Origin: Asaia bogorensis
GTDB lineage: Bacteria > Pseudomonadota > Alphaproteobacteria > Acetobacterales > Acetobacteraceae
NCBI GenBank assembly: GCA_945897825.1
Contig: CAMDGX010000022.1
Location: forward strand, 1 to 55,892
Reading direction: 5' to 3'
DNA length: 55,892 nt
In this document: positions 3,885-53,418 of the stretch, piece after piece
Layout of the letters: every line of letters starts with the position of its first letter
Numbering within the stretch: the first letter of the stretch is position 1
The notes under the pieces: model-generated
Database searches by the model: none
Seen by the model: only the letters and a program-made list of their open reading frames with translations
What the model was told of the DNA's origin: nothing
Program-made: the position numbers and the translations under genes

Positions 3885-4002
3885 GGTTCTTTTTTGTAAA
3901 AAAGAACCAAAAAACTTTCGTCCGTTTGCACCTCGCCAGACGGTCTGGCACGGTGCAAATGGATGAAAAGTCTTTTTGCTTCTTTTTCTTCAGAAAAAGA
4001 AG
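3885..4002 (+). repeat. Intergenic composite palindrome R1 (7-copy family)
   Basis: A/T-rich island in GC-rich DNA, between the convergent nitroreductase and ABC ATPase genes (5 nt and 9 nt from their stop codons). The left hairpin is at 3885-3908 (GGTTC...GAACC arms around a T6/A-run). A large central stem follows, in which TTTGCACC and GGTGCAAA pair, extended outward by an ACTTT/AAAGT zone. The right hairpin is at 3979-4002 (CTTCTTTTTC, loop TTCA, GAAAAAGAAG). The core between the TTTGCACC and GGTGCAAA arms holds its own hairpin, GCCAGA/TCTGGC. T-rich tracts follow the central stem on both strands, as in a bidirectional intrinsic terminator. Confidence 0.9.
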
Positions 4003-4011
4003 AATCTTCCT

Positions 4012-5805
4012 TCAGCGAGGCACCGCCGCCACCAAGGCCCGCGTATGCTCATGCCGCGGCCATCCGAACACCGTCTCCGTCGGCCCTTCCTCCACGATCG
4101 TGCCGCCCTGCATCACCAGCACCCGGTCGCACAGATGCCGCACCATCGCCAGGTCGTGGCTGATGAACAGCAGCGCGAAGTCATGGTCCTGCCGCAGCCG
4201 GTGCAGCAGCATCAACAGCTGTGCCTGCACCGATACATCCAGCCCCGACACGATCTCGTCCGCCACCAGCAGGCGGGGCCCGTTGCACAGCGCGCGGGCG
4301 ATGTTCACCCGCACCCTCTGCCCGCCGGACAGCTGCGCCGGGGTGCGCACGCCCAGTTCCAGCGCCATCCCCATCTCCGCCAGCAATTCCCGCGCCCGCT
4401 TCTCGCGCACCCGGGAGCGCGCGTCCCGCGCCTCCAGCGCCTGGGTGACGATGTCCGACACGCGCCGCCGCGGGTTCAGCGCCGCATTCGGGTCCTGGAA
4501 CACCATCTGCACGCTGCCGACCCGGTGCAGCCGCGCCGCCTCGTCCCCCGCCGTCACATCCTGCCCCGCCAGCACGATGCGCCCGCCGCTTGGCTGCTCC
4601 AGCCCCGCCACCAGCCGCGCCAGCGTCGACTTGCCGCTGCCGCTCTCCCCCACCACCGCCACGAACTCCCCGGGCGCGATCCGCAGGTTCACATCGCGCA
4701 CCGCCTCCACCGTCCCGCGCCGCGGCCACGCCCCGGTGGCGAAGCGCTTGGACACGCGCTCCATCTCCAGCACCGGCGCCTCCCCGGCCGGCCGCCACGG
4801 CGCCGGCGTCAGGCTTCCCGCCACCGCGATCGTCGGCACCAGCCCCGGGCGCAGGCAGGCGCTGCGATGCGCGTCGCCTTCCAGCGGCGGCTCGCTGCGC
4901 AGGCAATACTCCGCCTTCACCGGGCAGCGCGGCGCGAACCGGCACCCATTCAGCCGCCCCAGCCCCCGCAGCCCCGGCATGTGTTCCGGCAGCGCATACA
5001 GCGCCCGCCGCGCCCCGGCGACCGGCGGGTTCGAAAGCTCCAGGCACCGCGTGTAGGGGTGGCGCGACGCCCGCATCACCTCCGCAGCCGGCCCGATCTC
5101 CACGATGTCCCCGGCATACATCACCGCCACCTCGTCGCAGACGCCCGCCGCCAGCCGCAGGTCGTGGGTGATGAACAGCACCGCCGTCCCGTGCGCCCGC
5201 TGCAATGCCTGCATCAGCCCGACGATGCGCGCCTGCGCCGTCACATCCAGCGCCGTGGTCGGCTCGTCCGCCACCACCAGCCGCGGACGCCCCGCGAACG
5301 CCATGGCAACCAGCACCAACTGGCACTCCCCGGCGGAAAGCTGGTGCGGGTAGCGCGCCAGCATCCCCAAAGGATCCGCCAATTGCACCGCCACCAGCGC
5401 CGCCAGCGCATACTCCCGCAGCGCGCGCCGCCCCCGCACCCCCAGCCGCCGGTGATGCTCGTCGAGTTGCGCCCCGATCGTCCGCATCGGGTTCAGCGCC
5501 GCGCGCGGGTCCTGCGGGATGAAGCCGATGTCCCGCCCCAGCAGCGCCCGCCGATGTTCCGCCGGCATCACCACCAGGTCGGCCCCGGCGAACTCCACCG
5601 AGCCATGGCTCACCCGGAACCCCGGCGGCAGCCTCTGGGAGACCGCGTGCCCCACCATCGACTTCCCGGCGCCCGACTCCCCGACCAGCCCCAGCACCCG
5701 CCCCGCCGCCAGCGCGAAGTTCAGCCCGCGCAGCACCGGCACCATCTCGCCCTCGACGCGCGCCTCCACCGACAGGCCGCGCACCACCAGCAGCGGCGCG
5801 GTCAT
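4012..5805 (-). CDS. Fused dual-ATPase subunit of dipeptide/nickel-type ABC importer
   Basis: 597 aa, two complete ABC domains of the DppD and DppF types in one chain. Domain 1 has Walker A GESGAGKS at 42-49, Q-loop IPQDPR near 96-101, Walker B LVVADEP ending at residue 182, and an oligopeptide-type Cys-rich tail (CRFAPRCPVKAEYC, residues 288-301). Domain 2 has Walker A GESGSGKS at 386-393, signature LSGGQ at 492-496 and Walker B LLVADE. Two departures stand out: the domain 1 signature reads LSAGE (156-160) instead of LSGGQ, and domain 2 reads DEIVSGLD instead of the common DEPVSALD. The start at 5805 overlaps the permease stop by 4 nt (ATGA), implying translational coupling. It powers uptake through the two permeases upstream in the operon. 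Confidence 0.9.
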   Translation of the reverse strand: MTAPLLVVRGLSVEARVEGEMVPVLRGLNFALAAGRVLGLVGESGAGKSMVGHAVSQRLPPGFRVSHGSVEFAGADLVVMPAEHRRALLGRDIGFIPQDPRAALNPMRTIGAQLDEHHRRLGVRGRRALREYALAALVAVQLADPLGMLARYPHQLSAGECQLVLVAMAFAGRPRLVVADEPTTALDVTAQARIVGLMQALQRAHGTAVLFITHDLRLAAGVCDEVAVMYAGDIVEIGPAAEVMRASRHPYTRCLELSNPPVAGARRALYALPEHMPGLRGLGRLNGCRFAPRCPVKAEYCLRSEPPLEGDAHRSACLRPGLVPTIAVAGSLTPAPWRPAGEAPVLEMERVSKRFATGAWPRRGTVEAVRDVNLRIAPGEFVAVVGESGSGKSTLARLVAGLEQPSGGRIVLAGQDVTAGDEAARLHRVGSVQMVFQDPNAALNPRRRVSDIVTQALEARDARSRVREKRARELLAEMGMALELGVRTPAQLSGGQRVRVNIARALCNGPRLLVADEIVSGLDVSVQAQLLMLLHRLRQDHDFALLFISHDLAMVRHLCDRVLVMQGGTIVEEGPTETVFGWPRHEHTRALVAAVPR

Positions 5806-7681: not shown

Positions 7682-7749
7682 GCGCGGCGCGGGCCTCCCT
7701 CATCCGCCCCTTTCCGCCGCCAGCATCCAAAGGGCAAGGGGGGCCGCAC

Positions 7750-9261: not shown

Positions 9262-9343
9262 CAAGTCCTCCAATGCCTCGCGTCGGCTTCGATGGCACGA
9301 AATCTAGCCGCGAACCACCCGGGCGGAAACCGCCGGCATCCGG

Positions 9344-9372: not shown

Positions 9373-9380
9373 CCCCACCC

Positions 9381-9839
9381 ATGCCAAGCATCCGCCCCGA
9401 ACCCCCGCGCCAACCCGAAATCATCGCGCTCCTCGAAGCGTCCGACGCCAACGCCCAGGCCCTCTACCCCCCCGAAAGCAACCACCTGCTCGACGTCGCC
9501 AGCCTGGAGAAACCCACCGTCCGCTTCTTCGTCGCCCGCCGCGACGGCGCCGCCATCGGCTGCGGCGCCATCGTCCTGGCCGGCGACGGCACCGCCGAGA
9601 TCAAACGCATGTTCGTCACCGAAGCCGCCCGCGGCACCGGCACCGCCCAGGCCCTGATGGAAACCCTGGAAACCGCCGCCCGCGCCGAAGGCATCGCCAC
9701 CCTGCGCCTGGAAACCGGCATCCACAGCCACGCCGCCCTGCGCCTCTACGAACGCCACGGCTACACCGTCCGCGGCCCCTTCGGCAGCTACGCCGAAGAC
9801 CCGCTCAGCGTGTTCATGGAGAAAGCCATAAGCAAGTAA
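9381..9839 (+). CDS. GNAT-family N-acetyltransferase
   Basis: 152 aa single-domain GNAT. Motif A, the acetyl-CoA pyrophosphate loop, is in IKRMFVTEAARGTGTAQALMETLE (residues 74-97; R-G-T-G-T-A fits Q/R-x-x-G-x-G/A). The C-terminal motif B is LRLYERHGYTVRGPF. It transfers acetyl from acetyl-CoA to an amine; the acceptor is unknown. It is divergent from the ABC operon, and its TAA lies 2 nt before element R2. It is the only + strand gene between the importer and the formamidase-like gene, so it may belong functionally to either. Confidence 0.85.
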   Translation: MPSIRPEPPRQPEIIALLEASDANAQALYPPESNHLLDVASLEKPTVRFFVARRDGAAIGCGAIVLAGDGTAEIKRMFVTEAARGTGTAQALMETLETAARAEGIATLRLETGIHSHAALRLYERHGYTVRGPFGSYAEDPLSVFMEKAISK

Positions 9840-9841
9840 GC

Positions 9842-9955
9842 GGTTCTTTTTTGAAAAAAAGAACCAAAAAACTTTCATCTCTTATGCCGAGCGCCAGCCA
9901 CCACACGGACCAAGTGCCAAAAGTCTTTTTGCTTCTTTTTCTTCAGAAAAAGAAG
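9842..9955 (+). repeat. Intergenic composite palindrome R2
   Basis: Left hairpin 9842-9865 and right hairpin 9932-9955 are fully conserved. The central arms have decayed: the TTTGCACC/GGTGCAAA pairing is lost, although ACTTT...AAAGTC remains. It lies between two + strand genes, 2 nt after the acetyltransferase stop and 34 nt before the formamidase-like start, so it occupies nearly the whole intergenic space. Confidence 0.88.
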
Positions 9956-9989
9956 ATTCTTTCTTAACCCCGGAAAGGACCCGCCTCCC

Positions 9990-12140
9990 ATGCACAAGCT
10001 CACCGGCTACACCAACCGCTGGGGCCAGAAGCAGGGAGCAACCATCCGCTTCCACGTCTCCAGCGCCGCCAAAACCCCCTTCCGCCTGCGCTTCGTCCGC
10101 CACATCTGCGCCGACCCCAACCCCGAAGGCCCCGGCTACGAGGAAATCGAACTCCCCTCCCCCCTGCCGGCCACCATCCCAGGCCAGGAACACGGCGCCT
10201 GGACCGGCAGCTACGCCCAGGCCGACGCCCTGAAACTCCCCGCCGGCGCCCTCACCCTGCGCGCCACCATCTGGCCCACCACCCCCGCCAAGGGCCCCCA
10301 GGGCATCCTCTCGCTGGACCTCCCCGGCTGGTCCCTGGCGCTTGCCATCGGCCCGAACGGCGGCGCCATGCTCCAGGCCACCGCCGCCGGCCGAACCATC
10401 GCCGCCGAAGTCCCCGCCCCGCTCATGGCCCGCCACTGGTACGACCTCACCGGCACCCTGGCCGCCGATGGCACCCTGACCATCACCCAAACCCCCCACC
10501 GCCCGCTCAAGGATGCCGGCACCGCAACGGCTCCCGGCGCCACCCCCTGCCCCGGCGCCCCCGCCCGCGCCCTCATCGCCGCCCTCCCCCCTGCCGGCAC
10601 CAACCCCCACGCCAGCGCCCACTACAACGGCAAGATCGAAGCCCCCGCCATCCTCGCCGGCCAAACCCAAGTCGCCACCTGGGACTTCGCCCAAGGCATC
10701 CAAACCCAAACCGCCACCGACACCGGCTCCCAGCACGCCCACGCCCGCCTCGTCGCCCTGCCCGCCCGCGCCATGACCGGCAGCACCTGGACCGGCGCTG
10801 TCCACGACTGGAAATCCGACCCCAGCCAATACGCCGCCATCCACTTCCACGACGACGACCAGGGCGACCTGGGCTGGCCCGAAACCTTCGCGCTGACCAT
10901 CCCCACCAACTGGCCCAGCGGCTTCTACGCCGCCCACATCAGCAACGACGCAGCCGAGGATTACATCCCCTTCTTCGTCCGCCCCGCCAAACCGGCGTCG
11001 GACGTCGCCTTCCTCGTCCCCACCTACAGCTACCAGGTCTACGGCAACTTCGTCCGCGAGGGCCGCGGCGCCGAGATCGCCGAGCGCGCGAAGGCCCGCG
11101 GCGCACTCCTCGAAACCCCGGACATGAACCCCCAGTTCGGCCTGTCCTGCTACAACCACCACTCCGACGGCTCCGGCGTCAGCCTCGTCTCCATGTTCCG
11201 CCCCCAGCTCGACACCCGCCCCCGCCAGATGGCCCACATCGACCCCGCCCACCCCCACGGCTCCGGCACCCAGCGCATCTGCGTCGACAGCTACTTCATC
11301 CACTGGCTCCACCACGAAGGCATCGCCCACGACGTCATCACCGACCACGACCTGCACGAGGAAGGCCTCTCCCTCCTCGCCCCCTACCGCGTCGTCATCG
11401 CCGCCCAGCACCCCGAATACCATTCCGACCGCATGATGCAGTCCCTGGAAGACTACCTCTCGCAAGGTGGCCGCCTCATGTATCTCGGCGGCAACGGCTT
11501 CTACTGGCGCGCCGAACCCTCCGAACACGCCCCCGGCGCGCTCGAAATCCGCCGCGCCGAATCCGGCATCCGCACCTGGGCCACCGAGCCCGGCGAGAGC
11601 TACCACCAGTTCGGCGGCGGCTATGCCGGCCTATGGCGCCGCATCGGCCGCCCCGCCCACAAGCTGGTCGGCAACGGCTTCTCGTGCCAGGGCCTGCACC
11701 GCGGCTTCCCCTACAAATTCACCGACGGCATCAACAACCCCCGCGTCGCCTTCATGACCGAGGGCCTCACCCCCACCCCCGGCCAGGCCTTCGGCGAAAC
11801 CGGCCACCAGGGCGGCGGCGCCGCCGGCCACGAGCTCGACAGCGTCAACTTCCGCTACGGCTCCCCCGAACACATCCTCATCGTCGCCAAGGGCATCGTC
11901 ATCCACGAGGACTACGGCTGGGTGAACGAAGACATGCTCACCCACCGCCACCCCCTCCCCCAGGAAGACTGGGCCTGCGCCGATGCCTGCTTCTTCGAAA
12001 CCCCCGCTGGCGGCGCGGTCTTCAGCGTCGGCTCCATGACCTGGGCCGGCAGCATGCCCATCCAAGGCACCCTGCGCACGCTCACCACCAACGTGCTGCG
12101 GCGCTTCATTGACCCGGCGCCGTTCCCCTGGCCAGAATAG
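9990..12140 (+). CDS. N,N-dimethylformamidase large-subunit-like protein
   Basis: 716 aa. The N-terminal ~290 residues look like a beta-rich, LamG-like domain (TWDFAQGIQTQTATDTG). The C-terminal part matches the N,N-dimethylformamidase large subunit: PTYSYQVYGNF (Tyr346, Tyr348, Tyr351), CYNHHSDGSG (Tyr388) and AAQHPEYHS (His474, Glu476). In the characterised enzyme iron is held by two Tyr and one Glu next to a His in an H-P-E motif; the same pattern is present here, but residue equivalence is my inference. The known enzyme also has a small subunit in a gene just upstream; none is found here, so substrate and quaternary structure are uncertain. Hydrolysis of an amide C-N bond is the likely chemistry. 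Third positions are extremely C-rich. Confidence 0.8.
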   Translation: MHKLTGYTNRWGQKQGATIRFHVSSAAKTPFRLRFVRHICADPNPEGPGYEEIELPSPLPATIPGQEHGAWTGSYAQADALKLPAGALTLRATIWPTTPAKGPQGILSLDLPGWSLALAIGPNGGAMLQATAAGRTIAAEVPAPLMARHWYDLTGTLAADGTLTITQTPHRPLKDAGTATAPGATPCPGAPARALIAALPPAGTNPHASAHYNGKIEAPAILAGQTQVATWDFAQGIQTQTATDTGSQHAHARLVALPARAMTGSTWTGAVHDWKSDPSQYAAIHFHDDDQGDLGWPETFALTIPTNWPSGFYAAHISNDAAEDYIPFFVRPAKPASDVAFLVPTYSYQVYGNFVREGRGAEIAERAKARGALLETPDMNPQFGLSCYNHHSDGSGVSLVSMFRPQLDTRPRQMAHIDPAHPHGSGTQRICVDSYFIHWLHHEGIAHDVITDHDLHEEGLSLLAPYRVVIAAQHPEYHSDRMMQSLEDYLSQGGRLMYLGGNGFYWRAEPSEHAPGALEIRRAESGIRTWATEPGESYHQFGGGYAGLWRRIGRPAHKLVGNGFSCQGLHRGFPYKFTDGINNPRVAFMTEGLTPTPGQAFGETGHQGGGAAGHELDSVNFRYGSPEHILIVAKGIVIHEDYGWVNEDMLTHRHPLPQEDWACADACFFETPAGGAVFSVGSMTWAGSMPIQGTLRTLTTNVLRRFIDPAPFPWPE

Positions 12141-12146
12141 GAAGCA

Positions 12147-12264
12147 CTTCTTTTTTGGAAAAAAAGAAGCAAAAAACTTTTCATCCATTTGCACCCAGGC
12201 CAGACAACTACTACGGGCGCAAATGGATAAAGTTTTTTTGCTTCTTTTTGTTCACAAAAAGAAG
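12147..12264 (+). repeat. Intergenic composite palindrome R3
   Basis: Between convergent genes, 6 nt from one stop and 10 nt from the other. The left hairpin (12147-12169) uses CTTC/GAAG outer arms instead of GGTTC/GAACC. The right hairpin (12241-12264) has G-TTCA-C at the loop closing pair where most copies have C-TTCA-G, a compensatory change. The central arm CATCCATTTGCACC faces GCGCAAATGGATA, imperfectly paired. Confidence 0.9.
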
Positions 12265-12274
12265 AATCCTTCCT

Positions 12275-13321
12275 TCAGAACCTTCCCTCGATCGCCCCGC
12301 CCCCCTCCGCGTAGCTCCGAGCGATAATCTCCACCACATGCGCCTGGATCTCCAGGCTGCGCGTCGAAACATCTCCCGCCTCGATCCGCGCCACGAACGC
12401 CTCGACGATCGTCGGCGCCGTCCCCACCTGGAAGCTCTGCACAGGCAGCCCGTCGAACACCCCCGCCGCGCCGCCAAACCCGCCCCCATCGGGCCGCCAC
12501 AGATGCACCAGCCCATCCGGCGACCCGGAGAACAGGATCCCCTCCCGCCCGATCACCACCATCCGCGCCCGCGTCGCCGTATGCGGCTGGCTGCCGTTCC
12601 AATGCGCATGCATCGACGCCGCCACCCCGCTCTCCAGCACCAGGCTCACCAGCGCGCTGTCCTCCACATCGGGCCGCACCACCGACCCGTCATCCATCAC
12701 CCGCGTCGCGAACCGCGTCGACAGCGACGAAGTGAACCGCGAGGCAGCCCCGAACAACGTGGCGATCGACGTCAGGTGATAGATGCCCAGATCTGCCAGA
12801 ACCCCACCGCCCGCCAGCGCCTTCTCATAGAACCACCCGGCATGCGTCGGCCCCTTGTGCCCCCGATGGCACTCCACGGCCGAAACCTCCCCCACCGCCC
12901 CGCGCGCGATCAGATCCGCGGCCAGAACATGATCCCCGGTCTCCACGAACGGCAACGCCATGAACGTCACCGGCCGCGCCCGCACCGCCGCGGCCAGCCG
13001 CGCCGCCTCGGCGAGCGTCGGCACCAGCGGCTTCTCCACCAGCACATGCTTGCCCGCCCGCACCGCCATCTCGGCGAAGTCCGCATGCGTATCCGGCGCC
13101 GTCAGCACCAGCACCGCATCCACCAAGGGGTCCGACACCACCGACGCCACATCCGTCGACCACCGCGCCACCCCGAACCGCGCCGCGCACTCGGCCAACC
13201 GCCCTTCATCCCGCCCCGCGATCGCCACCAGCACCGCCCGCCCGCCCAGCTCCGCCAGCTGCGGAAAATGCTTCCGCTGCGCGATATCCCCATACCCGAC
13301 CGCCGCGATCCGCACCGTCAC
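12275..13321 (-). CDS. Gfo/Idh/MocA-family NAD(P)-dependent oxidoreductase
   Basis: 348 aa. The N-terminal Rossmann fold begins VTVRIAAVGYGDIAQRKHFPQL, in which the usual GxGxxG reads GYGDIA. The family's catalytic EKP lysine is in GKHVLVEKPLV, near residue 95. The C-terminal alpha/beta domain includes HKGPTHAGWFYEKALAGGGVLADLGIYHL. I chose GTG at 13321 because it overlaps the TGA of the upstream dehydrogenase by 4 nt (GTGA), a coupled start. Enzymes of this family oxidise or reduce sugars, inositols or their derivatives; the specific substrate is unknown. It ends 10 nt before R3. Confidence 0.85.
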   Translation of the reverse strand: MTVRIAAVGYGDIAQRKHFPQLAELGGRAVLVAIAGRDEGRLAECAARFGVARWSTDVASVVSDPLVDAVLVLTAPDTHADFAEMAVRAGKHVLVEKPLVPTLAEAARLAAAVRARPVTFMALPFVETGDHVLAADLIARGAVGEVSAVECHRGHKGPTHAGWFYEKALAGGGVLADLGIYHLTSIATLFGAASRFTSSLSTRFATRVMDDGSVVRPDVEDSALVSLVLESGVAASMHAHWNGSQPHTATRARMVVIGREGILFSGSPDGLVHLWRPDGGGFGGAAGVFDGLPVQSFQVGTAPTIVEAFVARIEAGDVSTRSLEIQAHVVEIIARSYAEGGGAIEGRF

Positions 13322-14409: not shown

Positions 14410-14432
14410 TGTCATCTCCCAAGAAAGCAAGC

Positions 14433-14541
14433 GGTTCTTTTTTGAAAAAAAGAACCAAAAAACTTTTATCCCTTCGCGTGGCGACTATCCCCGACGCAAA
14501 TGGATAGAGTTTTTTTGCTTCTTTTTGTTCACAAAAAGAAG
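14433..14541 (+). repeat. Intergenic composite palindrome R4
   Basis: The only copy between two minus-strand genes: 8 nt from the tartrate dehydratase stop and 23 nt upstream of the dehydrogenase start. The left hairpin 14433-14456 matches R1 except in its loop. The right hairpin 14518-14541 carries the G-TTCA-C variant shared with R3. The central left arm is degenerate. The element still points the same way as all other copies even though the flanking genes are on the minus strand. Confidence 0.9.
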
Positions 14542-14549
14542 ACTCCTTC

Positions 14550-15713
14550 TTACTCCGCCAACGCCTTCATCTGCGCATAAAGATCGGACTTCCCCTCAAA
14601 TCCGATCCCCGGCAACTCCGGCAGCGTCACGAACCCGTCCTCCACCCGCACACCATCGGGAAACCCACCATACGGCTGGAACAAATCCGGATAGCTCTCA
14701 TTCCCCCCCAGCCCCAACCCCGCCGCGATCATCAGCGACATCTGGTGCCCCCCATGCGGCACCACCCGCCGCCATGACCACCCCGCATCCCGGATCACCC
14801 CGAGCGTCCGCTGGAACTCGCACAACCCGTAGCTCAGCGCGCAATCGAACTGCAGGAAATCCCGATCCGCCCGCATCCCGCCATACCGCAGCAGGTTCCG
14901 CGCATCCTGGTGGCTGAACAGGTTCTCCCCCGTCGCCATCGCCCCCGGATAGAAATCCGCGAGCGCCGCCTGCAACTGGTAGTCGAGCGGATCCCCCGCC
15001 TCCTCGTACCAGAACAGCCCATACCCCCGCATCATCTTCGCATAGGCAATCGCCGTCTCCAGGTCGAACCGCCCATTCGCATCCACCGCCAGCCGCGCCC
15101 GCCCATCCAGGTCCCGCAGCACCGCCTCGATCCGCCCCCGGTCCGCGTCGACCGAATCCCCGCCGATCTTCATCTTCACCACGGTGTAGCCACGGTCGAG
15201 ATACGACCGCATCTCCGCGCAAAGCTGCGACGTATCCTTCCCCGGGTAGTAGTACCCCCCCGCCGCATACACGAACACGCGCGGATCGGCCTCGATCCCA
15301 TGCCGCTCCGCCAACAGCCGGAACAACGGCTTGCCCGCGATCTTCGCCACCGCATCCCAAACCGCCATGTCGATGGTCCCGACAGCCACCGACCGCTCCC
15401 CATGCCCCCCCGGCTTCTCGTTCTTCATCAGCGCGGCCCAAACCGCATCCGGATCAAGATTGTCCCCCGCCGCATTCACCAGCGAAGCCGGATCGGCCTC
15501 CAGCACCCGATCCCGGAACCGCTCCCGGATCAGCCCGCCCTGCCCATACCGCCCATTGGAATTGAACCCATACCCGATGACGGTCTTCCCATCCCGCACC
15601 TGGTCGGTCACCACCGCCACCAGGCTGCTCGTCATCTTCGAGAAGTCGATATAGGCATTGCGGATCGGCGAGGCGATCGGCCGCGTCACCTCACGAACAT
15701 CGACAATGCGCAT
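14550..15713 (-). CDS. tarD: D-tartrate dehydratase (enolase superfamily)
   Basis: 387 aa. The sequence follows the Bradyrhizobium D-tartrate dehydratase closely, as I remember it: RIVDVREVTRPIASPIRNAYIDF, GYGFNSNGRYGQGGLIRERF, YYYPGKD and a C-terminal GIGFEGKSDLYAQMKALAE. Mandelate-racemase-type catalytic elements are visible: the KxK motif VVKMKIG (K180, K182), the Mg ligands starting at AVDANG, and the general base His320 in VPHGGHQMS. The numbering is two lower than the characterised protein, consistent with a start two residues shorter. It dehydrates D-tartrate to oxaloacetate in the cytoplasm. The ATG at 15713 has GGAGGG 6 nt upstream. It may be in one pathway with the neighbouring dehydrogenases. 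Confidence 0.87.
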   Translation of the reverse strand: MRIVDVREVTRPIASPIRNAYIDFSKMTSSLVAVVTDQVRDGKTVIGYGFNSNGRYGQGGLIRERFRDRVLEADPASLVNAAGDNLDPDAVWAALMKNEKPGGHGERSVAVGTIDMAVWDAVAKIAGKPLFRLLAERHGIEADPRVFVYAAGGYYYPGKDTSQLCAEMRSYLDRGYTVVKMKIGGDSVDADRGRIEAVLRDLDGRARLAVDANGRFDLETAIAYAKMMRGYGLFWYEEAGDPLDYQLQAALADFYPGAMATGENLFSHQDARNLLRYGGMRADRDFLQFDCALSYGLCEFQRTLGVIRDAGWSWRRVVPHGGHQMSLMIAAGLGLGGNESYPDLFQPYGGFPDGVRVEDGFVTLPELPGIGFEGKSDLYAQMKALAE

Positions 15714-20154: not shown

Positions 20155-21660
20155 TCACCCCGCCCAGCGCCGCACATCCAACGGCGGCGTCGACACCTTG
20201 TACTCGTCGGTGATCCGCGGCGCCTGCATCAGCTTCGCGATATCCGGCACCGGCCGGCACAGCTCCGCCTCCCCCGCCACCGCCATCTCGATCCCCAGCG
20301 CCGCCCGCAGCGTCGCCAGGTCCGCAGCCGCCGGCCCCGTCACCATCATCCCGAACGGCGTCCCGCTCGGCTCCAGCCCCATCGGCATCGACAGGCTCGG
20401 ATTGCCGGTCAGCGAGATCATGTAGGTCAGCGAGAACCAGTGGAAATACGTGTTCAGCCGCACCCCGTTGATCTCGTTCTGGTACAGCTGGCTCCACGGG
20501 AACGGCGGCACCGCCAGCGTCGGCGACAGGATCAGGTCGTAGCTCTCGAACACATGCTGCACCGCGCGATAGATCCGCGTCTGCTCCCCCTGCGCCCAGG
20601 CCACGTCCGCCGCCGAATACTGCAACCCCTCCTCGTAGTTGGCGATCATGTTCGGCCCCAGCAGCGCCCGCTTCGCCGGATCCGTGTAGTTCGCCCGCTG
20701 CCCGTGCAGCATCCCCGCCGCCCGCAACACCCCGAACGCCTCGTGCGCCCGCCCCATGTCCGGCGCCACCGCCTCGCACACCTTGAACAACGGCCGCAGC
20801 TTCGCGATCCGCGCCCGGAACGTCGCCGCGATCCCCGCATCCACCGGGCAGGTCCCCCAATCCTCGGTGAACCCCACCCGCAGCGTCGCAGGGTCGCGCG
20901 GCGACGGGTCGCGGAACACCGCCCCGTCGATCGGCCGCGACAGCGGGTCCATCGCATCGAACCCCGCCTGCGCCGACAGCAGCAGGCAGGTATCCGCCAC
21001 ATCCCGCCCCATCGGCCCCAGCGTCGGGATCATGTTCCACCCCTGCCCGCGCCGGTCGGTCGGCACCAGCCCCGGCGACGGCCGAAACCCCACCACCCCG
21101 CAGAACGCCGCCGGAATCCGCAAGCTGCCGCCCCCGTCCGACCCCGTGCAGATCGGCAGCATCCCCGTCGCCAGCGCCACCGCCGACCCGCCGGAGGACC
21201 CACCCGGAATCCGCGTCGGATCGAACGGATTGCCCGACGGCCCATACACCGGGTTGTTAGAATTCGCCCCCGCCCCGAACTCCGGCACGTTGGTCTTGCC
21301 CACAACGATCGCCCCCGCCCCGCGGCACCGCGCCACCATCGGATCGTCCGATGCCGGCCGGTTGGTGGCGAAGATCCGCGACCCGTAGGAGTTGATCAGC
21401 CCCTCGGCATCGTCGAGGTCCTTCACCCCCAGCGGCAACCCGTGCAGCGCCGGCAACGCCTCGCCGCGCATCACCGCCGCCTCCGCCGCCTTCGCCTCCG
21501 CCTCGGCGCGCGGCCAGATCGTGTCGGTCACCGCCTTCACCGCATGGTTCACCGCCCCGATCCGCGCCCGGCAACTCGCCAGCAGCTCCACCGGCGACAG
21601 CTTGCGCGCCCCGATCAGCCGCCGCGCCTCGACCGCCGGAAGATCACATGCCTCGGTCAT
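20155..21660 (-). CDS. Amidase-signature family amidase
   Basis: 501 aa. The amidase-signature triad is complete: K80 (GLPLGVKDL), cis-Ser S155 (GGSSGGSA) and nucleophile S179 (SDGGGSLRIP), with the family-typical 24-residue gap between the serines. It hydrolyses a carboxamide to acid and ammonia in the cytoplasm; it could also act on an aryl or cyclic amide. The ATG at 21660 lies 1 nt after the TGA of the upstream amidase, so the pair is co-translated. Both are divergent from a peptide-type ABC importer, which suggests that the imported compound is their substrate (inference). GatA is unlikely because gatB and gatC are absent. Confidence 0.88.
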   Translation of the reverse strand: MTEACDLPAVEARRLIGARKLSPVELLASCRARIGAVNHAVKAVTDTIWPRAEAEAKAAEAAVMRGEALPALHGLPLGVKDLDDAEGLINSYGSRIFATNRPASDDPMVARCRGAGAIVVGKTNVPEFGAGANSNNPVYGPSGNPFDPTRIPGGSSGGSAVALATGMLPICTGSDGGGSLRIPAAFCGVVGFRPSPGLVPTDRRGQGWNMIPTLGPMGRDVADTCLLLSAQAGFDAMDPLSRPIDGAVFRDPSPRDPATLRVGFTEDWGTCPVDAGIAATFRARIAKLRPLFKVCEAVAPDMGRAHEAFGVLRAAGMLHGQRANYTDPAKRALLGPNMIANYEEGLQYSAADVAWAQGEQTRIYRAVQHVFESYDLILSPTLAVPPFPWSQLYQNEINGVRLNTYFHWFSLTYMISLTGNPSLSMPMGLEPSGTPFGMMVTGPAAADLATLRAALGIEMAVAGEAELCRPVPDIAKLMQAPRITDEYKVSTPPLDVRRWAG

Positions 21661-21661
21661 C

Positions 21662-23146
21662 TCACGCCGCCCCCACATGCACCGGCGGCACCTGTCCGAA
21701 CCACGCCGGATGCGCCCGCTCCAACTGCGCCGCCACCTGCATCAGCAGCGCCTCCTCGCCCCACGCCGCATAGAACTGCGCCCCGATCGGCAACCCGTCG
21801 GCATCAAGCCCCGTCGGCACCGAGATCCCCGGCAACCCGGTCTCGTTGCCCGGCATGGTGTAGCGGCAGGCATCGCACAGCCGCCCCACCCAGGTGTCGA
21901 GATCCTCGTCGCGCAGCAGCGAATACGGCCCGTTCGCCGCCGGCACCCGGATCGCCAGCGTCGGCGTCAGCAGCAGGTCATAAGTGTCCATCACCCGCCC
22001 GAACTGCCGCGTGACCGTATTGTTGTCCGCCATCATCCGCAGCATGTCGCGCTTGTCGTAGCGCTGGGCGGCCAGGAAATGCCGGTAGGTCATCGGCGTC
22101 AGGTACGAGGCAAGCTCCTGCGGCTCGATCCCCAGCGCCCGCGCCCGGTCGTCCAGCGTCGCCACCCCGTTGATCCACACCGCCACATAGGCGCGCCACA
22201 GCGTCTCCCAGTCGCAGATGTCGCCATCCTTCACCTCCTCGACATGGTGCCCAAGCGCCTCCATCGCCCGTCCCACCACCCGCACCCGCTCCGCCACCGC
22301 CGGATCGGTCGGCACGCCGCGCCCCCACATCCCGGTCGAAAGCCCGATGCGCAGCTTCGGCGGATCGCGCTCGATCGCCGCCAGGTACGACCCTCGCGGC
22401 GGCCCCATCGCGATGAACGTCCCGCCTTTCGGCACCCGCGCCAGCGTCTCGTACACCGCCGCCGTATCGCGCACCGACCGCGTCACCACCCCGTCGGCAC
22501 TCACCCGCACCATGTACTCGCTCTGGAAATGCGGCCGCGGCACTCGCCCGCGCGACGCCTTCAGCCCGACCAGCCCACAGAACGCCGCCGGAATCCGCGT
22601 CGAGCCCCCTCCGTCGCCCGACATCGCCACCGGCACGATCCCCGCCGCCACCGCCGCCGCCGACCCGCCCGAGGAGCCGCCCGGCGTGTGCGCCAGGTTC
22701 CACGGATTGCGCGTCACCAGCAGCCGGTCCACATCGGTCGCGGTATCGAAGGTCAGCCCGAACTCCGGGCTGGTCGACCGCCCCAGCGGCACCAGCCCGC
22801 CAGCCAGGAAGTTCGCGATCACCGGATCGGTCTGCGGCACCACGTAGCCGCGCGTCAGCTTCGACCCGCCCTGCTGCGTCCGCCCCTTCAGCCCCGAGCC
22901 CAGGTCCTTCAGGAACATCGGCACGCCATACAGCCCGCCATCGCGCGCCGGCCCGTCGGCATCGGGATTGGCCAGCACGTCCTGGAAGATCTCCAGCACC
23001 GCCTCCAGCTTCGGGTTCAGCATCGCCGTCGCCGCCGCCGCCTGCGCCGCGAGATCCCGCGCCGAAACCTCCCCCTTGCGCACCAACCCTGCCAGCGCCA
23101 CCCCGTCGTGCCGCGCCCACTCCGCCCAGCCCATCGCCTGCGTCAT
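21662..23146 (-). CDS. Amidase-signature family amidase
   Basis: 494 aa, second amidase of the pair and only distantly similar to the first. Triad: K80 (GVPMFLKDL), S158 (TPGGSSGGS) and S182 (GDGGGSTRIP). I chose the ATG at 23146 because GGGAGGG lies about 7 nt upstream; an earlier ATG at 23173 lacks this. First gene of the operon. It shares a 174-nt intergenic region with the divergent ABC importer, which would allow common regulation. Confidence 0.88.
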   Translation of the reverse strand: MTQAMGWAEWARHDGVALAGLVRKGEVSARDLAAQAAAATAMLNPKLEAVLEIFQDVLANPDADGPARDGGLYGVPMFLKDLGSGLKGRTQQGGSKLTRGYVVPQTDPVIANFLAGGLVPLGRSTSPEFGLTFDTATDVDRLLVTRNPWNLAHTPGGSSGGSAAAVAAGIVPVAMSGDGGGSTRIPAAFCGLVGLKASRGRVPRPHFQSEYMVRVSADGVVTRSVRDTAAVYETLARVPKGGTFIAMGPPRGSYLAAIERDPPKLRIGLSTGMWGRGVPTDPAVAERVRVVGRAMEALGHHVEEVKDGDICDWETLWRAYVAVWINGVATLDDRARALGIEPQELASYLTPMTYRHFLAAQRYDKRDMLRMMADNNTVTRQFGRVMDTYDLLLTPTLAIRVPAANGPYSLLRDEDLDTWVGRLCDACRYTMPGNETGLPGISVPTGLDADGLPIGAQFYAAWGEEALLMQVAAQLERAHPAWFGQVPPVHVGAA

Positions 23147-26769: not shown

Positions 26770-28745
<1,976 letters not shown>

Positions 28746-28753
28746 GGAAGCAC

Positions 28754-28870
28754 GTTCTTTTTTGAAAAAAAGAACCAAAAAACTTTTGTCCATTTGCACC
28801 GCGGCTGAACCGTCAGCCACGGTGCAAATGGGAGAAAGTCTTTTTGCTTCTTTTTCTTCAGAAAAAGAAG
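28754..28870 (+). repeat. Intergenic composite palindrome R5
   Basis: Between convergent genes (8 nt and 15 nt from the stops). Left hairpin 28754-28775, right hairpin 28847-28870. The central stem is the best preserved with R1: TCCATTTGCACC faces GGTGCAAATGGGA, and the core contains GGCTGA/TCAGCC, which occupies the same place as GCCAGA/TCTGGC in R1 with different bases but the same pairing. Confidence 0.92.
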
Positions 28871-28885
28871 AACCCTTGCTTCCCT

Positions 28886-30118
28886 TCAGCGCCCCATGTC
28901 GCGCAGGAAGTCGATCTGCCAGCGCATCTCATCCACGGCGAGCGGGAAGCCGCCGCCGGGGGTGGGGCGCAGCACGGCGGAGGGATTCAGGCGGGCGAGC
29001 AGGGTTTGCAGCGGGACGGCCACCTGCATCGAGAAGCCGGCCTTCCAGACCAGGCTGAGCAGGCCCTTGGCGCTGCGCAGCGTTGCCGCGCGGTCGACCA
29101 CCGAGGCCGGCACTTCCGCGGCCAGGGCAAGGATGGCGGTGGCCATGCGCGGCTCCCCGCGCTGCACGGCGGCGAGCAGGGCTGCCTCGTCGAGCTTGTG
29201 CAGCGCCTGGAGTTGCAGGGCTTCCTGCATGGCCTGGTCGATGTCCGGGTCGCGGCGGGTGCGGTCCTGGGGCGGGTTGAGCCGTGCCTCCAGCCGCTGG
29301 CGCAGTTCGCGCGCGGTCGATACCGGCAGGTCGGCGCGGCCGGCCAGCACGTCGAGCAGGTGGGTGGCGACGTAGCTCGACAGCGCGCGGGCGGCGCGGT
29401 CGGACAGGCGCGGACGGGAGACCAATGGCTGGTGCCATGCCTCGTGCGCGCTGCCAGTTTCAGCCAGCATGTCGAGCGTGGCTTCGCGGATCGCCGCGGT
29501 GGTGTTGGCGAGCAGGGCGGTGATGGCGCGCACGTTGCTGGAGGAGGCGACGGCATCCGCCACCTCCTCGGCCAGGCGGGGGCGGGAGGCGATGGAGACC
29601 GCGACCTCGCCTGACGGCGTGTCGGCCAGCAGGGCCAGCAGGTCCTCGGAGGAGAGGATCGGCGACAGGCGCACGACGGGGTCGAAGACCTGGGTCGCGG
29701 AGTCGCGGGCGAGTTGGAGGATGAGGCTGCGCGGCGCCTCGGGCATGTCCTTCAGCACGTCGGCCATCGCCGCGCGCACGCGCACCGCCTCGTCGCTGAC
29801 CAGGCGGTGCAGGGTGGCCAGCGCGCGCTCGCGCAGGGTGGCCTGGTCGGCGGCGGCCAGGCCGGGGACCAGGCTGGCGAGCTTGCGCGCCAGCAGCGTG
29901 CGCACGCGCTCGTCCTGGTCCTGGGCCAGGACATGGTCGGTCTCGCCGCCGGCGGAGGGATTCATGGCGACGGCGGCGCGCACCGTGACCGAGGGATCGG
30001 TGGCGAGCGAGCGCAACACGTCGGGCGCGGTGTCGGGTGCGGCGCCGAGGCGGACGCGCAGCGCCTCGGTCTCGGCCGGCGGGATCGCGAGAAGGGCGGT
30101 GTCGTCGCTCGGGGACAT
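28886..30118 (-). CDS. DUF2336 family protein
   Basis: 410 aa, soluble and mostly helical, with repeat-like segments resembling HEAT repeats ([61 protein letters not shown]). I recognise it as DUF2336, an alphaproteobacterial family of unknown function. The ATG at 30118 shares one base with the TGA of the diguanylate cyclase (TGATG), so the two are translationally coupled and probably act together, perhaps as a scaffold or effector in c-di-GMP signalling (inference). It ends 15 nt before R5. Confidence 0.8.
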
Positions 30119-32560: not shown

Positions 32561-32575
32561 GAAGGGAAGGAAGTT

Positions 32576-32682
32576 GTTCTTTTTTGAAAAAAAGAACCAA
32601 AAAACTTTCCCCCTTTTGACGCGGAATCAACCCCCGCAAATGGATGAAAGTCTTTTTGCTTCTTTTTCTTCAGAAAAAGAAG
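32576..32682 (+). repeat. Intergenic composite palindrome R6
   Basis: Lies between dapD (stop 15 nt away) and dapE (start 25 nt away). Left hairpin 32576-32597, right hairpin 32659-32682. The left central arm is diverged (CCCCCTTTTGACGCGG) while the right arm GCAAATGGATGAAAGTC is conserved, so the long central stem is weak here. It is the shortest copy. Confidence 0.88.
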
Positions 32683-32707
32683 ACTCTTTCTGGCTTATGG
32701 ATCGCGC

Positions 32708-33835
32708 ATGAACACCCCGATCGACCCGCTGGAACTCGCCCAGGCGCTGATCCGCTGCGCGTCCGTCACGCCCGCCGATGCCGGCGCGCAGGACGTGCTG
32801 GCGGACGCGCTGGCGGCGCTTGGCTTCACCGTCACGCGGCTGAAGTTTGGCGAGATTGAGAACCTGTTCGCGCGGATCGGCACCGGCGGCCCGCATATCT
32901 GTTTCGCCGGCCACACCGACGTGGTGCCGGAAGGGGCGGCGAACTGGTCGGCCGGCCCGTTCGCGGGCGAGGTGAAGGATGGCGTGCTGTATGGCCGCGG
33001 CGCCTGCGACATGAAGGGCGCGATCGCCGCCTTCGTGGCCGGCGCGGCCGACCATCTGCGGGGCGGTGCGCCGAAGGGATCGATCTCGCTGCTGATCACC
33101 GGCGACGAGGAAGGCCCGGCGATCGACGGCACGGTGAAGGTGCTGGAGTGGATGCAGGCGAACGGCCAGGTGCCGGATTTCTGCATCGTGGGCGAGCCGA
33201 CCAACCCGGCGGCGCTGGGCGACATGATCAAGGTCGGCCGGCGCGGCAGCGTGAACATGACGCTGACGGTGCATGGCATCCAGGGCCACGTCGCCTATCC
33301 GCACCGTGTCGACAACCCGGTGCACCGGCTGGCGCGCATCGCGGCGGCATTGACGGCGGCCCCGATCGACGCGGGCAGCGAATTCTTCGAGCCGACCAGC
33401 ATCCAGCTGACCAGCATCGATGTCGGCAACGCGGCGACCAACGTGGTGCCGGCCAGCGCGCGCATGATGCTGAACATCCGCTTCAACGAACGCCATTCCG
33501 GCGCCGCGCTGGCCGCCTGGGTGCGCGCCACCGCCGAGCGGTATGCCGAGCGCTTCGACCTCGATGTGTCCATCAGCGGCGAAAGTTTCCTCACCCCGGT
33601 CGGCCCGGAGATCGAGGCGCTGACGGCGGCGATCGCCGAGGCGACCGGCCGGCAGCCCAAGCTGGACACCGGTGGCGGCACCTCCGATGCGCGCTTCATC
33701 GCCCGCTACTGCCCGGTGGCGGAGTTCGGCCTGGTCGGGCAGACGATGCACCAGGTGGACGAGCGCGTGCCGGTGGACGAGTTGCGCGAGCTGGCGCGCA
33801 TCTACCGCGCGGTACTGGACAAGCTGGTGCGATGA
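32708..33835 (+). CDS. dapE: Succinyl-diaminopimelate desuccinylase
   Basis: 375 aa M20 metallopeptidase. Zinc-site residues: H69 and D71 (CFAGHTDVVPEG), D101 (YGRGACDMKG), the catalytic Glu pair in TGDEEG, and a C-terminal His in GQTMHQVDE. The dimerisation domain is at about 180-295. It releases L,L-diaminopimelate and succinate. No Shine-Dalgarno is evident; instead a mini-ORF (ATG GAT CGC GCA TGA, 32697-32711) ends in ATGA overlap with the dapE start. Only 25 nt separate the start from R6, so expression may depend on read-through from dapD. Confidence 0.95.
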   Translation: MNTPIDPLELAQALIRCASVTPADAGAQDVLADALAALGFTVTRLKFGEIENLFARIGTGGPHICFAGHTDVVPEGAANWSAGPFAGEVKDGVLYGRGACDMKGAIAAFVAGAADHLRGGAPKGSISLLITGDEEGPAIDGTVKVLEWMQANGQVPDFCIVGEPTNPAALGDMIKVGRRGSVNMTLTVHGIQGHVAYPHRVDNPVHRLARIAAALTAAPIDAGSEFFEPTSIQLTSIDVGNAATNVVPASARMMLNIRFNERHSGAALAAWVRATAERYAERFDLDVSISGESFLTPVGPEIEALTAAIAEATGRQPKLDTGGGTSDARFIARYCPVAEFGLVGQTMHQVDERVPVDELRELARIYRAVLDKLVR

Positions 33836-44796: not shown

Positions 44797-44883
<87 letters not shown>

Positions 44884-45031: not shown

Positions 45032-45056
45032 GGGCGGGCGTTTACGGGAGCGTATC

Positions 45057-48121: not shown

Positions 48122-48133
48122 AGGGGCTATGAC

Positions 48134-48697: not shown

Positions 48698-48724
48698 TAC
48701 GACCTGCCTGAAGGAGCCGGAGCC

Positions 48725-51700: not shown

Positions 51701-53293
51701 ACCGGCCTGATCGCCAAGCTGCGCCACTCCACCCCCGGCGTCATGCTCATCTCCCCCCCGCCGCACCACGACATCTACTCCATCGAGGACCTCGCCCAGC
51801 TCATCTACGACCTCAAGCAGATCAACCCCGACGCCACCGTCTGCGTGAAGCTCGTCGCCCGCTCCGGCATCGGCACCATCGCCGCCGGCGTGGCGAAAGC
51901 GAAAGCCGACGCCATCCTCATCTCCGGCCACTCCGGCGGCACTGGCGCCAGCCCGCAAACCTCGGTGAAATACGCCGGCCTGCCCTGGGAAATGGGCCTG
52001 TCCGAAACCCACCAGGTCCTCATGCTCAACCGCCTGCGCCACCGCGTGAAGCTGCGCACCGACGGCGGCATCAAAACCGGGCGCGACGTCGTCATCGCCG
52101 CCATGCTCGGCGCCGAGGAATTCGGCATCGGCACCGCCAGCCTCGTCGCCATGGGCTGCATCATGGTCCGCCAGTGCCACAGCAACACCTGCCCCGTCGG
52201 CGTGTGCAGCCAGGACGAGAAGCTCCGCGCCAAGTTCGAAGGCACCCCCGAGAAGGTCATCAACCTCTTCAGCTTCATCGCCGACGACGTCCGCCACATC
52301 CTCGCCTCCCTCGGCGTGCGCACCCTCGCCGAGGTCATCGGCCGCACCGACCTCCTCCACCAGGTCAGCCGCGGCTCCGAGATGCTCGACGACCTCGACC
52401 TCAACCCCCTCCTCGTCCAGGCCGACCCCGGCCCCTTCGCCCGCTACTGCACGCTCGAAGGCCGCAACGAAGTCCCCGAAACCCTCGACGCGCAAATGAT
52501 CGCCGACGCCCGCGCCTTCTTCGACCACGGCGAGAAGATGCAGCTCGAATACAACATCCGGAACACCCAGCGCGCCATCGGCACCAAGTTCAGCAGCCGC
52601 ATCGTCCGCAAGTTCGGGATGTCCGGCCTCCAGCCCGGCCACGTCACCGTCCGCCTGCGCGGCTCCGCCGGCCAGTCCCTCGGCGCCTTCGCCGTCCAGG
52701 GCCTCAAGCTCGAAGTCTTCGGCGACGCCAACGACTACGTCGGCAAGGGCCTCTCCGGCGCCACCATCGTGGTCCGCCCCGCCCCCTCCTCCACCCTGCA
52801 AAGCCACCTCAACACCATCATCGGCAACACCGTCCTCTACGGCGCCACCGCCGGCCATCTCTTCGCCGCCGGCCAGGCCGGCGAGCGCTTCGCCGTGCGC
52901 AACTCCGGCGCCACCGCCGTCGTCGAAGGCATCGGCTCCAACGGCTGCGAGTACATGACGGGCGGCACCATCGCCATCCTCGGCCCCGTCGGCGACAATT
53001 TCGGCGCCGGCTTCACCGGCGGCATGGCCTTCGTCTACGACCCCGAAAACCTCTTCCGCCTGCGCGTGAACCCCGAATCCCTGCTCTGGCAACGCGTCGC
53101 CACCGCCCACTGGTCAAACACCCTGCGCGACCTCGTCGCCACCCACGCCCGCGAAACCAACAGCAGCTACGCCACCCGCCTCCTCCACGACTGGGACCGC
53201 GTCCTGCCCCAGTTCTGGCAAGTCGTCCCGCGCGACTTCGTCCGCTACCTCAATCAGCCGCTGGGTGACACCGTCGAAGCTATCAGGGCATAG
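48725..53293 (+). CDS. gltB: Glutamate synthase large subunit
   Basis: 1522 aa, full length. A 37-residue propeptide precedes the glutaminase nucleophile Cys38 (EHDACGVGLVA). The class II amidotransferase domain runs to about 430 (HQRYSTNTFPTWRLAQPFRALAHNGEINTL), then the central domain and the FMN-binding barrel with the Fe-S cysteines in GCIMVRQCHSNTCPVGVC. The C-terminal beta-helix domain is rich in G-x-x-x-G repeats (NTIIGNTVLYGATAGHLFAAGQAGERFAVRNSG). AAGGAG precedes the ATG. Composition turns from G-rich to C-rich on the + strand in its first 300 nt. Its stop is 7 nt from R7. Confidence 0.97.
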   Translation: MSQPEAPAPSAETFVRDWQDNARRLAATYDATQEHDACGVGLVAALDGRARRDVVQAGIDALKAVWHRGAVDADGKTGDGAGIHVEIPQDFFADAVRRGGDRLRPGPIAVGQVFLPKTDLGAQERCRQIVESEIIAFGYGIYGWRQVPIDTSCIGEKANATRPEIEQIMIWSHKEADTDIAAFERDLYVIRRRIEKQAIAAQIPELYFCSLSCRSIIYKGMFLAESLSEFYPDLLDERFVSRFAIYHQRYSTNTFPTWRLAQPFRALAHNGEINTLSGNVNWMKSHETRLSAPQLDPFMDDIKPVIQAGGSDTATLDNVFEVLLRAGRDAPMAKALMIPASIGNDATMKQSYKDMFLYCNSVMEPWDGPAALAATDGRWVIAGLDRNGLRPLRYTIARNALLIVGSEAGMVKLDESEIVEKGRVGPGQTIGVDLDTATFFADEAMKDMLAARQPFGEWAKRIRQIDHIVKTDAPEPVLFERDELRRRQLAVGTTLEELEMILHPMVEEAQEAVGSMGDDTPIAVLSEKYRGLHHYFRQGFSQVTNPPIDSLRETRVMTLKTRLGNLGNVMDEDSSQFDLLQLESPVLSTAEFAAMRETMGRNACVVDCTFPVADGESGLRAALERIRREAEEGVRAGCTHVILTDEAMGPDRVAIPMILATGGVHTHLVRSSLRTFTSLNVRAAECLDVHTFAVLIGVGATTINAYLAQEGIADRHRRGLFGPISLKEAVQRFKKAVDKGLLKIMSKMGISVISSYRGGYNFEAIGLSRQLVGEFFPGMQSRISGIGLSGIARKILALHDDAWSMETATLPVGGLYKLRQRGETHAFDGGLIHMLQEAVATDSFGLYRRYAEAVRRMPPVALRDLLDFRDPDSIRGGTKPIPVDEVESITEIRKRLLAPGISLGALSPEAHETLSIAMNRIGARSDSGEGGEDPARAKPRPNGDNANSAIKQIASGRFGVTAEYLNNCREIEIKVAQGAKPGEGGQLPGFKVTGLIAKLRHSTPGVMLISPPPHHDIYSIEDLAQLIYDLKQINPDATVCVKLVARSGIGTIAAGVAKAKADAILISGHSGGTGASPQTSVKYAGLPWEMGLSETHQVLMLNRLRHRVKLRTDGGIKTGRDVVIAAMLGAEEFGIGTASLVAMGCIMVRQCHSNTCPVGVCSQDEKLRAKFEGTPEKVINLFSFIADDVRHILASLGVRTLAEVIGRTDLLHQVSRGSEMLDDLDLNPLLVQADPGPFARYCTLEGRNEVPETLDAQMIADARAFFDHGEKMQLEYNIRNTQRAIGTKFSSRIVRKFGMSGLQPGHVTVRLRGSAGQSLGAFAVQGLKLEVFGDANDYVGKGLSGATIVVRPAPSSTLQSHLNTIIGNTVLYGATAGHLFAAGQAGERFAVRNSGATAVVEGIGSNGCEYMTGGTIAILGPVGDNFGAGFTGGMAFVYDPENLFRLRVNPESLLWQRVATAHWSNTLRDLVATHARETNSSYATRLLHDWDRVLPQFWQVVPRDFVRYLNQPLGDTVEAIRA

Positions 53294-53300
53294 GCAAGAC

Positions 53301-53418
53301 GTTCTTTTTTGAAAAAAAGAACCAAAAAACTTTCCATCCATTTGCCCCGCGCCTGGACCGACGAGCACGGTGCAAATGGATAAAAGTTTTTTTGCTTCTT
53401 TTTCTTCAGAAAAAGAAG
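53301..53418 (+). repeat. Intergenic composite palindrome R7
   Basis: Follows gltB by 7 nt and precedes the MFS gene by 83 nt. Left hairpin 53301-53322, right hairpin 53395-53418. The central stem pairs CATCCATTTGC with GCAAATGGATA; the core shows no clear secondary hairpin. Confidence 0.9.

What the first reader, a model, noticed from the sequence alone, without database searches (positions are those of the whole stretch)
3885..53418. Seven-copy composite palindromic element hugging gene 3' ends
R1-R7 (3885, 9842, 12147, 14433, 28754, 32576, 53301) share a left hairpin, a long central stem and a right hairpin, 107-118 bp in all, A/T-rich in a very GC-rich genome. Left and right halves are inverted copies of each other, so each element could form a large branched cruciform. 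Every copy lies 2-15 nt from at least one stop codon, and the convergent copies R1, R3 and R5 abut both stops. Both strands have T-rich tracts after the central stem. This suggests a mobile or amplified bidirectional terminator; I do not recognise it as a named family. No target-site duplication or transposase is visible.
Basis: partly seen in the sequence, partly recalled or inferred. Interest (0 to 1): 0.85.

Follow-up and report, generated by a model that had tools for sequence, protein, structure and literature searches.

The report
Repeated gene-ending hairpin element
A DNA element about 115 letters long, present in hundreds of copies, sits against the stop signals of genes in a family of bacteria and looks like a two-way transcription stop that provides most of the recognisable stops of this kind in the part of the genome examined; this has not been measured.

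Summary
The seven copies are real and belong to a large family: about 370 copies in this unnamed Acetobacteraceae genome. In a 456-kb sample, 42 composites pair two outer hairpins around a fast-changing, still self-complementary centre. 22 lie between convergent genes, 18 co-directional, 2 divergent; 40 of 42 touch a stop codon, 3-18 nt away or inside the element. By my scan the element supplies 47 of 55 terminator-like gene ends. At 12 of 21 comparable sites at least one genus mate lacks it; R6 (dapD-dapE) is absent in 8 of 8. A model matches 49 of 150 family genomes but, in a class draw of 190, only this one. No target duplication, Rfam match or Y1 transposase was found here. Best reading: a dispersed, insertion-capable bidirectional intrinsic terminator whose ends often form the stop codon. 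Caveats: 12 of 18 co-directional copies lie within 40 nt of the next start, so termination there must leak or the element must carry a promoter; a relative with few copies also has few ordinary terminators; no RNA data.

The parts
3875..4013 (.). R1, between convergent genes (nitroreductase-family gene ending 3879 on +, ABC ATPase gene ending 4012 on -)
   Evidence: model match 146.7 bits; gene ends; Pfam
9832..9966 (.). R2, co-directional, 4 nt after the stop of a GNAT acetyltransferase gene (ends 9839); central stem degenerate
12136..12275 (.). R3, convergent; orthologous site filled in G002 and G003, one hairpin left in G001, G004, G006
14423..14552 (.). R4, co-directional (minus); filled also in G002, empty in G001, G003, G004, G006
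28743..28881 (.). R5, convergent; copy used for the sub-features below
28743..28745 (+). TGA stop of the left gene, touching the R5 outer arm
28754..28775 (+). R5 left outer hairpin, inward loop TGAA (GGTTC type)
28777..28845 (+). R5 central stem with flanking A tract and T tract: predicted terminator hairpin for both strands
   Evidence: (pair I8)
28847..28870 (+). R5 right outer hairpin, TGAA loop when read inward (GCTTC type)
28886..28888 (-). stop of the right, convergent gene (DUF2336 protein)
32562..32693 (.). R6, between dapD and dapE; absent in 8 of 8 genus mates, where the genes are a few nt apart
   Evidence: gene names
53290..53429 (.). R7, after gltB (glutamate synthase large subunit); absent in the 6 genus mates with the orthologue
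   Evidence: gene name

Best explanation
The element is one dispersed family of bidirectional intrinsic transcription terminators, found so far only in one bacterial family (Acetobacteraceae). RNA polymerase leaving a gene on either side passes the stop codon, a purine-rich arm and a short A/U hairpin. It then makes the central stem, followed by a U-rich tract (AAAGUYUUUUUGCUUCUUUUUC), where it should pause and release. The same holds on the other strand because the two ends are inverted near-copies. New copies appear by insertion at gene ends, often so close that the element end itself forms the stop codon. Shown: sequence, structure potential, placement, presence or absence between relatives. 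Inferred: termination, insertion as the usual direction of change, the role of the outer hairpins, and an unknown copying machinery.
For: Two hairpins in 42 of 43 hairpin clusters of the sample. Convergent enrichment odds ratio 7.8, P 1e-8; divergent depletion among gaps of 80 nt or more, P 1.5e-5 (on counts). 17 of 18 co-directional copies are nearer to the upstream stop than to the next start (counted by hand; P 1.4e-4). 47 of 61 element-bearing gene ends but 8 of 342 others are terminator-like; intragenic control 1 of 311 (one convergent copy can serve two gene ends). Central halves pair better within a copy than between copies: mean -17.9 against -14.1 kcal/mol, none of 10,000 permutations as good. 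Compensatory pairs in the outer stems. Stops at the element TAA 25, TAG 19, TGA 15 against TAA 41, TAG 96, TGA 269 for all called genes, P 1.5e-13 for TAA. 12 of 21 sites lack it in at least one mate. Annotation of a Pseudoroseomonas cervicalis plasmid shows a copy between two convergent genes, 9 and 2 nt from their ends.
Against: No transcript data. 12 of 18 co-directional copies lie within 40 nt of the next called start; at R6 the next gene is dapE, and the promoter scan found nothing there, though its chance level is also near zero (0.2). 14 of 61 element-bearing ends do not score as terminators. At R6 the tool's own terminator scan names only the right hairpin, and 1 hit is near the shuffle mean of 0.7. 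RNAalifold called the two outer hairpins only, not the central stem, and a copy's own partner half is the single best in only 6 of 42. G009, with few copies, has few ordinary terminators too (4 of 185 ends, one of them an element-like copy), so their scarcity need not be the element's doing. The outer hairpins are more alike (91-93%) than termination alone needs.
Confidence: 0.66

Rival explanations
1. REP-like mRNA 3'-end module: the hairpins mainly block exonucleases and stabilise the upstream message, with little termination, so that downstream genes in an operon are still read.
For: Copies R4 and R6 stand between gene pairs that nearly touch in mates without the element, and 12 of 18 co-directional copies leave little promoter room. 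The hairpin that follows the stop is among the most conserved parts.
Against: The T tract directly after the central stem on both strands and the high share of terminator-like ends at the element fit termination better. Convergent enrichment is stronger than a stabiliser needs (inference).
Confidence: 0.18
2. Selfish MITE-like element: a transposase still acting or lost spreads it, and placement at gene ends is only what selection tolerates.
For: About 370 copies, patchy spread (49 of 150 family genomes), sites lacking it, two different but inverted ends (30 of 42 strictly GGTTC-type plus GCTTC-type, none strictly GGTTC plus GGTTC).
Against: No target duplication at any constant offset, k 2-8. 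Pairing of the central stem is kept on average, which a parasite would not need. Distances to stops are narrow (3-18 nt). No transposase was seen inside or between elements, but only the sample was looked at.
Confidence: 0.11
3. DNA-level role (cruciform, nucleoid or supercoil sink between convergent genes, or an uptake-like signal) with termination as a by-product.
For: Four-arm potential with complementary purine and pyrimidine outer arms (by eye); TGAA loops conserved beyond the need of a terminator.
Against: No single hairpins inside genes in the sample, unlike uptake signals. Co-directional copies also hug the upstream stop (17 of 18).
Confidence: 0.05

Closest known systems
SPRITE of Streptococcus pneumoniae (PMC3049150, passages seen)
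   Same: Short AT-rich interspersed repeat shaped like a Rho-independent terminator, enriched between convergent genes and near 3' ends, no target duplication found, thought to be co-opted as terminator.
   Different: SPRITE: 30 copies, an 18-bp duplex plus U-rich tract, no comparable empty site found by its authors. Here: about 370 copies, two outer hairpins and a central stem, both strands, sites lacking it found. I compared no sequences.
Paired uptake sequences as terminators (DUS/USS; PMC1852404, passages; PMC2346458, abstract start in a listing)
   Same: A repeated motif in inverted pairs forms a large share of a genome's terminators.
   Different: Those motifs are 9-11 nt and occur inside genes too; here 42 of 43 clusters are pairs and none lies wholly inside a called gene.
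REP/BIME with RAYT (PMC3733652, passages; PMC2817692, abstract start in a listing)
   Same: Extragenic palindromes near 3' ends; REP termini can give the TAG stop to flanking genes.
   Different: No GTAG or CGTC tag in the consensus (by eye), no single units, T tracts present, no Y1 transposase match in this genome.
Ordinary bidirectional intrinsic terminators (general knowledge; PMC1590033, passages)
   Same: Stem flanked by A tract and T tract.
   Different: Ordinary ones share no sequence between genes; here the 37 aligned copies (of 42; five long ones left out) have 73% mean column identity.

Membership tests
Intrinsic (Rho-independent) terminator | Stem-loop directly followed by a T tract | tested here: met
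   26 of 42 copies on both strands, 14 on one, 2 on neither
Intrinsic (Rho-independent) terminator | Releases transcripts in cells or in vitro | not testable with these tools
   No RNA data
MITE | Inverted-repeat ends, short, non-coding, multicopy | tested here: met
   the two ends are near-copies, not exact ones
MITE | Target-site duplication | tested here: not met
   42 copies, k 2-8, offsets 0-25, against permuted flanks; the single k=8 match is one copy
MITE | Parent transposon with the same ends | tested here: inconclusive
   None noticed in the 456-kb sample, where partners were sought within 160 nt only; the whole genome was not screened
REP/BIME (RAYT-linked) | GTAG or CGTC tag at one end | tested here: not met
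   Not in the consensus of A1; read by eye
REP/BIME (RAYT-linked) | RAYT (Y1_Tnp, PF01797) in carriers | tested here: not met
   No match in G000 and in 5 of 8 genus mates; 3 of 8 have one match, 28-29 bits, over the cut-off of 23
SPRITE | Pneumococcal SPRITE sequence profile | not tested
   No profile at hand; alike in kind only
DUS/USS terminator | Short motif also present singly in coding DNA | tested here: not met
   1 stray single match in 455.9 kb
Rfam families | Match at gathering score | tested here: not met
   Only a tRNA in the window

The most novel reading that the evidence does not exclude
A self-spreading gene-ending module: a mobile element that enters gene ends at or within the stop codon, brings its own stop codons and a two-way terminator, and has become the main source of recognisable intrinsic terminators in a genome, copied by an unknown machinery that reads the TGAA-loop hairpins.
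Probability: 0.25. Interest if true: 0.8.

Novelty: new variant of a known kind. Interest (0 to 1): 0.6.

Why it matters
If true, most recognisable intrinsic termination in a bacterial genome comes from one spreading repeat rather than from terminators that arose gene by gene. It would give a natural test of how a terminator between operon genes is tolerated (R6, dapD-dapE), would help to call gene ends and operons in Acetobacteraceae, and would give a set of short bidirectional terminators with natural variants. I found no description in the held library: six literal hairpin strings gave 0 papers, and the listings of eight word searches showed none. Most subscription journals are not in that library.

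Tried and rejected
RAYT or IS200/IS605 mobilisation: no PF01797 match in G000. Target duplication: none. Uptake-signal reading: no single copies in the sample. Intrastrand triplex repeats (PMC4666352: abstract, sections 15 and 16, and a name search): none of the five acetic-acid genera that I searched for is named there, and by eye the third strand does not fit. Rfam: nothing but a tRNA. Motif-pair paper PMC5217627 (passages): none of five Acetobacteraceae names searched for occurs in it. Idea that the ends close all three reading frames: rejected, only 1 of 84 ends did so within 45 nt. Idea that copies close to the next gene have weaker stems: median -17.2 (n 12) against -22.2 kcal/mol (n 22), P 0.25, not shown. 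Whole-genome screen for a transposon with the same ends: not done. In one search the R3 part used an off-frame query, so its printed C-termini are not used; one search replaces it. RNAalifold did not call the central stem, probably because the variable centre is misaligned between copies; the permutation was used instead, and model R1 has no central stem. In one search three of 89 composites were dropped for short centres (one hairpin probably counted twice); one of the 21 sites, without an empty state, rests on two of them, and the 178 ends include all three. 'Empty' means a gap under 70 nt without the hairpin, so some such sites hold other sequence.

Full report
WHAT IS THERE. The seven copies are confirmed. 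One arm pattern finds 14 matches in the window and none in 100 shuffles. In the whole genome it finds 368 forward and 371 reverse matches, with 0 for the reversed control. Each copy gives about one match per strand (40 + 44 for 42 copies in the sample), so the genome holds about 370 copies in 4.93 Mb. The density of the sample alone would give about 450; the sample is the window plus stretches of long contigs.

ANATOMY. I sampled 455.9 kb of this genome: the window plus 20 stretches of 20 kb, one from each of contigs C1-C20. It holds 43 hairpin clusters; 42 are pairs, and the single one is a stray match in an AT-rich stretch. From outside in, each end has a purine-rich arm (AAGNAAGN-like, by eye), a hairpin of mostly 9-10 bp (157 of 178 ends) whose loop read inward is TGAA in 144 of 178 ends from nine genomes, an A tract, then the variable centre. 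Outer stems change in step: the pair next to the loop is T-A 91, C-G 58, G-C 25. In the stricter alignment count, 3 of 21 outer pairs show changes on both sides. The two ends are usually of different type: 30 of 42 copies pair a strict GGTTC-type with a strict GCTTC-type end and none pairs two strict GGTTC-type ends; 9 have an end outside the strict types and 3 have two GCTTC-type ends. The centre varies quickly, but its halves pair with each other better than with halves of other copies (mean -17.9 against -14.1 kcal/mol, none of 10,000 permutations as good, 42 copies). The effect is an average: the own partner was the single best in only 6 of 42.

PLACE. With a simple home-made gene caller (426 genes, 89% coding), 22 of 42 copies lie between convergent genes, 18 between co-directional and 2 between divergent ones. 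Convergent enrichment: odds ratio 7.8, P 1e-8. 40 of 42 copies touch at least one stop, and 21 of 22 convergent ones touch two; the exceptions are the two divergent copies and one side of L042:14019. In 59 contacts the stop lies 3-18 nt from the matched hairpin; in two more the called stop lies inside the element. Stop usage at contacts is TAA 25, TAG 19, TGA 15, against TAA 41, TAG 96, TGA 269 for all called genes. So the element end, rich in AAGTAAG- and TAGGAAG-like strings, often forms the stop. Annotation of a Pseudoroseomonas cervicalis plasmid, made by others, shows the same: one gene ends 9 nt before the match and the convergent one ends 2 nt after it. In the plasmid collection only this species (2 records) and one partial Enterococcus match of 22% were found.

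FUNCTION. I scanned 403 gene 3' ends for a stem of -9 kcal/mol or better followed by a T-rich tract. Of 61 with an element, 47 score; of 342 without, 8 score; of 311 intragenic windows, 1 scores. The scan has no special knowledge of the element, but its T-tract rule favours AT-rich DNA. Two element-free family members show ordinary GC-rich terminators: G033 (62.5% GC) 19 of 148 ends, intragenic 2 of 100; G030 (58.5% GC) 13 of 116, intragenic 4 of 84, so noisier, and with 2 loose hairpin matches. G009 (69% GC, about 37 arm matches in its genome) has only 4 of 185, one of them element-like, intragenic 0 of 125. So the element is the main recognisable intrinsic terminator here, but whether it replaced ordinary ones or these are rare at high GC anyway is open. 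Against full termination: 12 of 18 co-directional copies are within 40 nt of the next called start codon, 4 of the 12 with a ribosome-binding-site-like string (my start calls are uncertain), and the promoter scan at R6 found nothing. There the downstream gene needs read-through or a non-standard promoter. Stems at these copies are not significantly weaker.

HISTORY. Around 21 sites compared in nine genus members, 12 have at least one genome with a gap under 70 nt and no hairpin. R6 is filled only in this genome; in the eight mates dapD and dapE are a few nt apart, and the stop is TGA there but TAG, continuous with the element arm, here (gene names). R7 is absent next to gltB in the six mates with the orthologue. 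R3 is present in five mates, in three of them as one hairpin. Shared sites show inheritance by descent; a site filled in one of nine genomes is most simply an insertion (parsimony; I built no tree). Paralogue and orthologue centres are about equally diverged (median identity 0.60 for 861 pairs, 0.62 for 60 pairs), so I could not name a source copy for any insertion. No target duplication exists at a constant offset.

DISTRIBUTION. Arm pattern: the 8 genus mates have 199-540 hits per strand. In the set of 60 genomes (own included) 19 have any hit; three of these lie outside the family with 1-2 hits, the level of the reversed control. Covariance model R1: 49 of 150 family genomes, 36 of 102 genera; at most 21 candidates were scored per genome, so counts per genome are capped. 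In a draw of 190 from the class, only this genome matched. In the 80 loci that I read, 65 of 90 arm matches have a second hairpin within 150 nt; several others have long centres holding other repeats. 26 stretches of IMG/VR contigs also carry the arm, 19 of 33 matches with a second hairpin; I did not test whether these are phage or host flank. That the held 'family' f1 is Acetobacteraceae is inferred from these names.

KNOWN KINDS. The closest by kind is SPRITE of pneumococcus (passages of PMC3049150), then paired uptake sequences (passages of PMC1852404) and REP elements (passages of PMC3733652; that paper also says that CGTC repeats are missing in Acetobacteraceae). Of the families tested, none is met in all its defining features except the structural definition of an intrinsic terminator; SPRITE membership was not tested. 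Passages found by keyword in a Gluconobacter RNA-seq paper (PMC5756330) and a MITE review (PMC10969869) do not describe it. Searches for six literal hairpin strings found no paper.

VERDICT. A real, amplified, bidirectional terminator-like element, widespread but patchy in one bacterial family, with clear presence/absence differences between relatives.

Noticed in passing
L206, L207 (orthologues of the L053:9156 site); centres in L057-L136: In G005 and G007 the left half of one copy is replaced by another repeat (CCCTCACCCC-type GC-rich hairpin), and several family members carry other repeats (GGATTGCTTCGCTTCGCTCGCAATGACG type) inside the centre, so the centre seems to accept insertions.
   Followed up: no
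window 32561-32710: R6 separates dapD and dapE, which are a few nt apart in eight genus mates; how dapE is expressed here is unexplained.
   Followed up: partly
L225:7432, L221:9303, L234:2863 and the same site in G000, G003, G005, G007: A copy sits where two convergent genes end; in G003, which lacks it, the two genes appear to overlap. With the element (read by hand) one gene appears to run into the hairpin and stop at the TGA of its loop, giving an element-coded C-terminus.
   Followed up: partly
L049:13486, L051:17581: A second GC-rich repeat (CAGGGGC-GCCCCTGGACCC type) also lies shortly after stops.
   Followed up: no
G028, G031, G012: Other genera carry their own main hairpin variants, which hints at species-wise homogenisation.
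   Followed up: no
window 20155-23146: Two neighbouring amidase genes (PF01425) on the minus strand share 76-79% identical blocks, probably a tandem duplication.
   Followed up: partly
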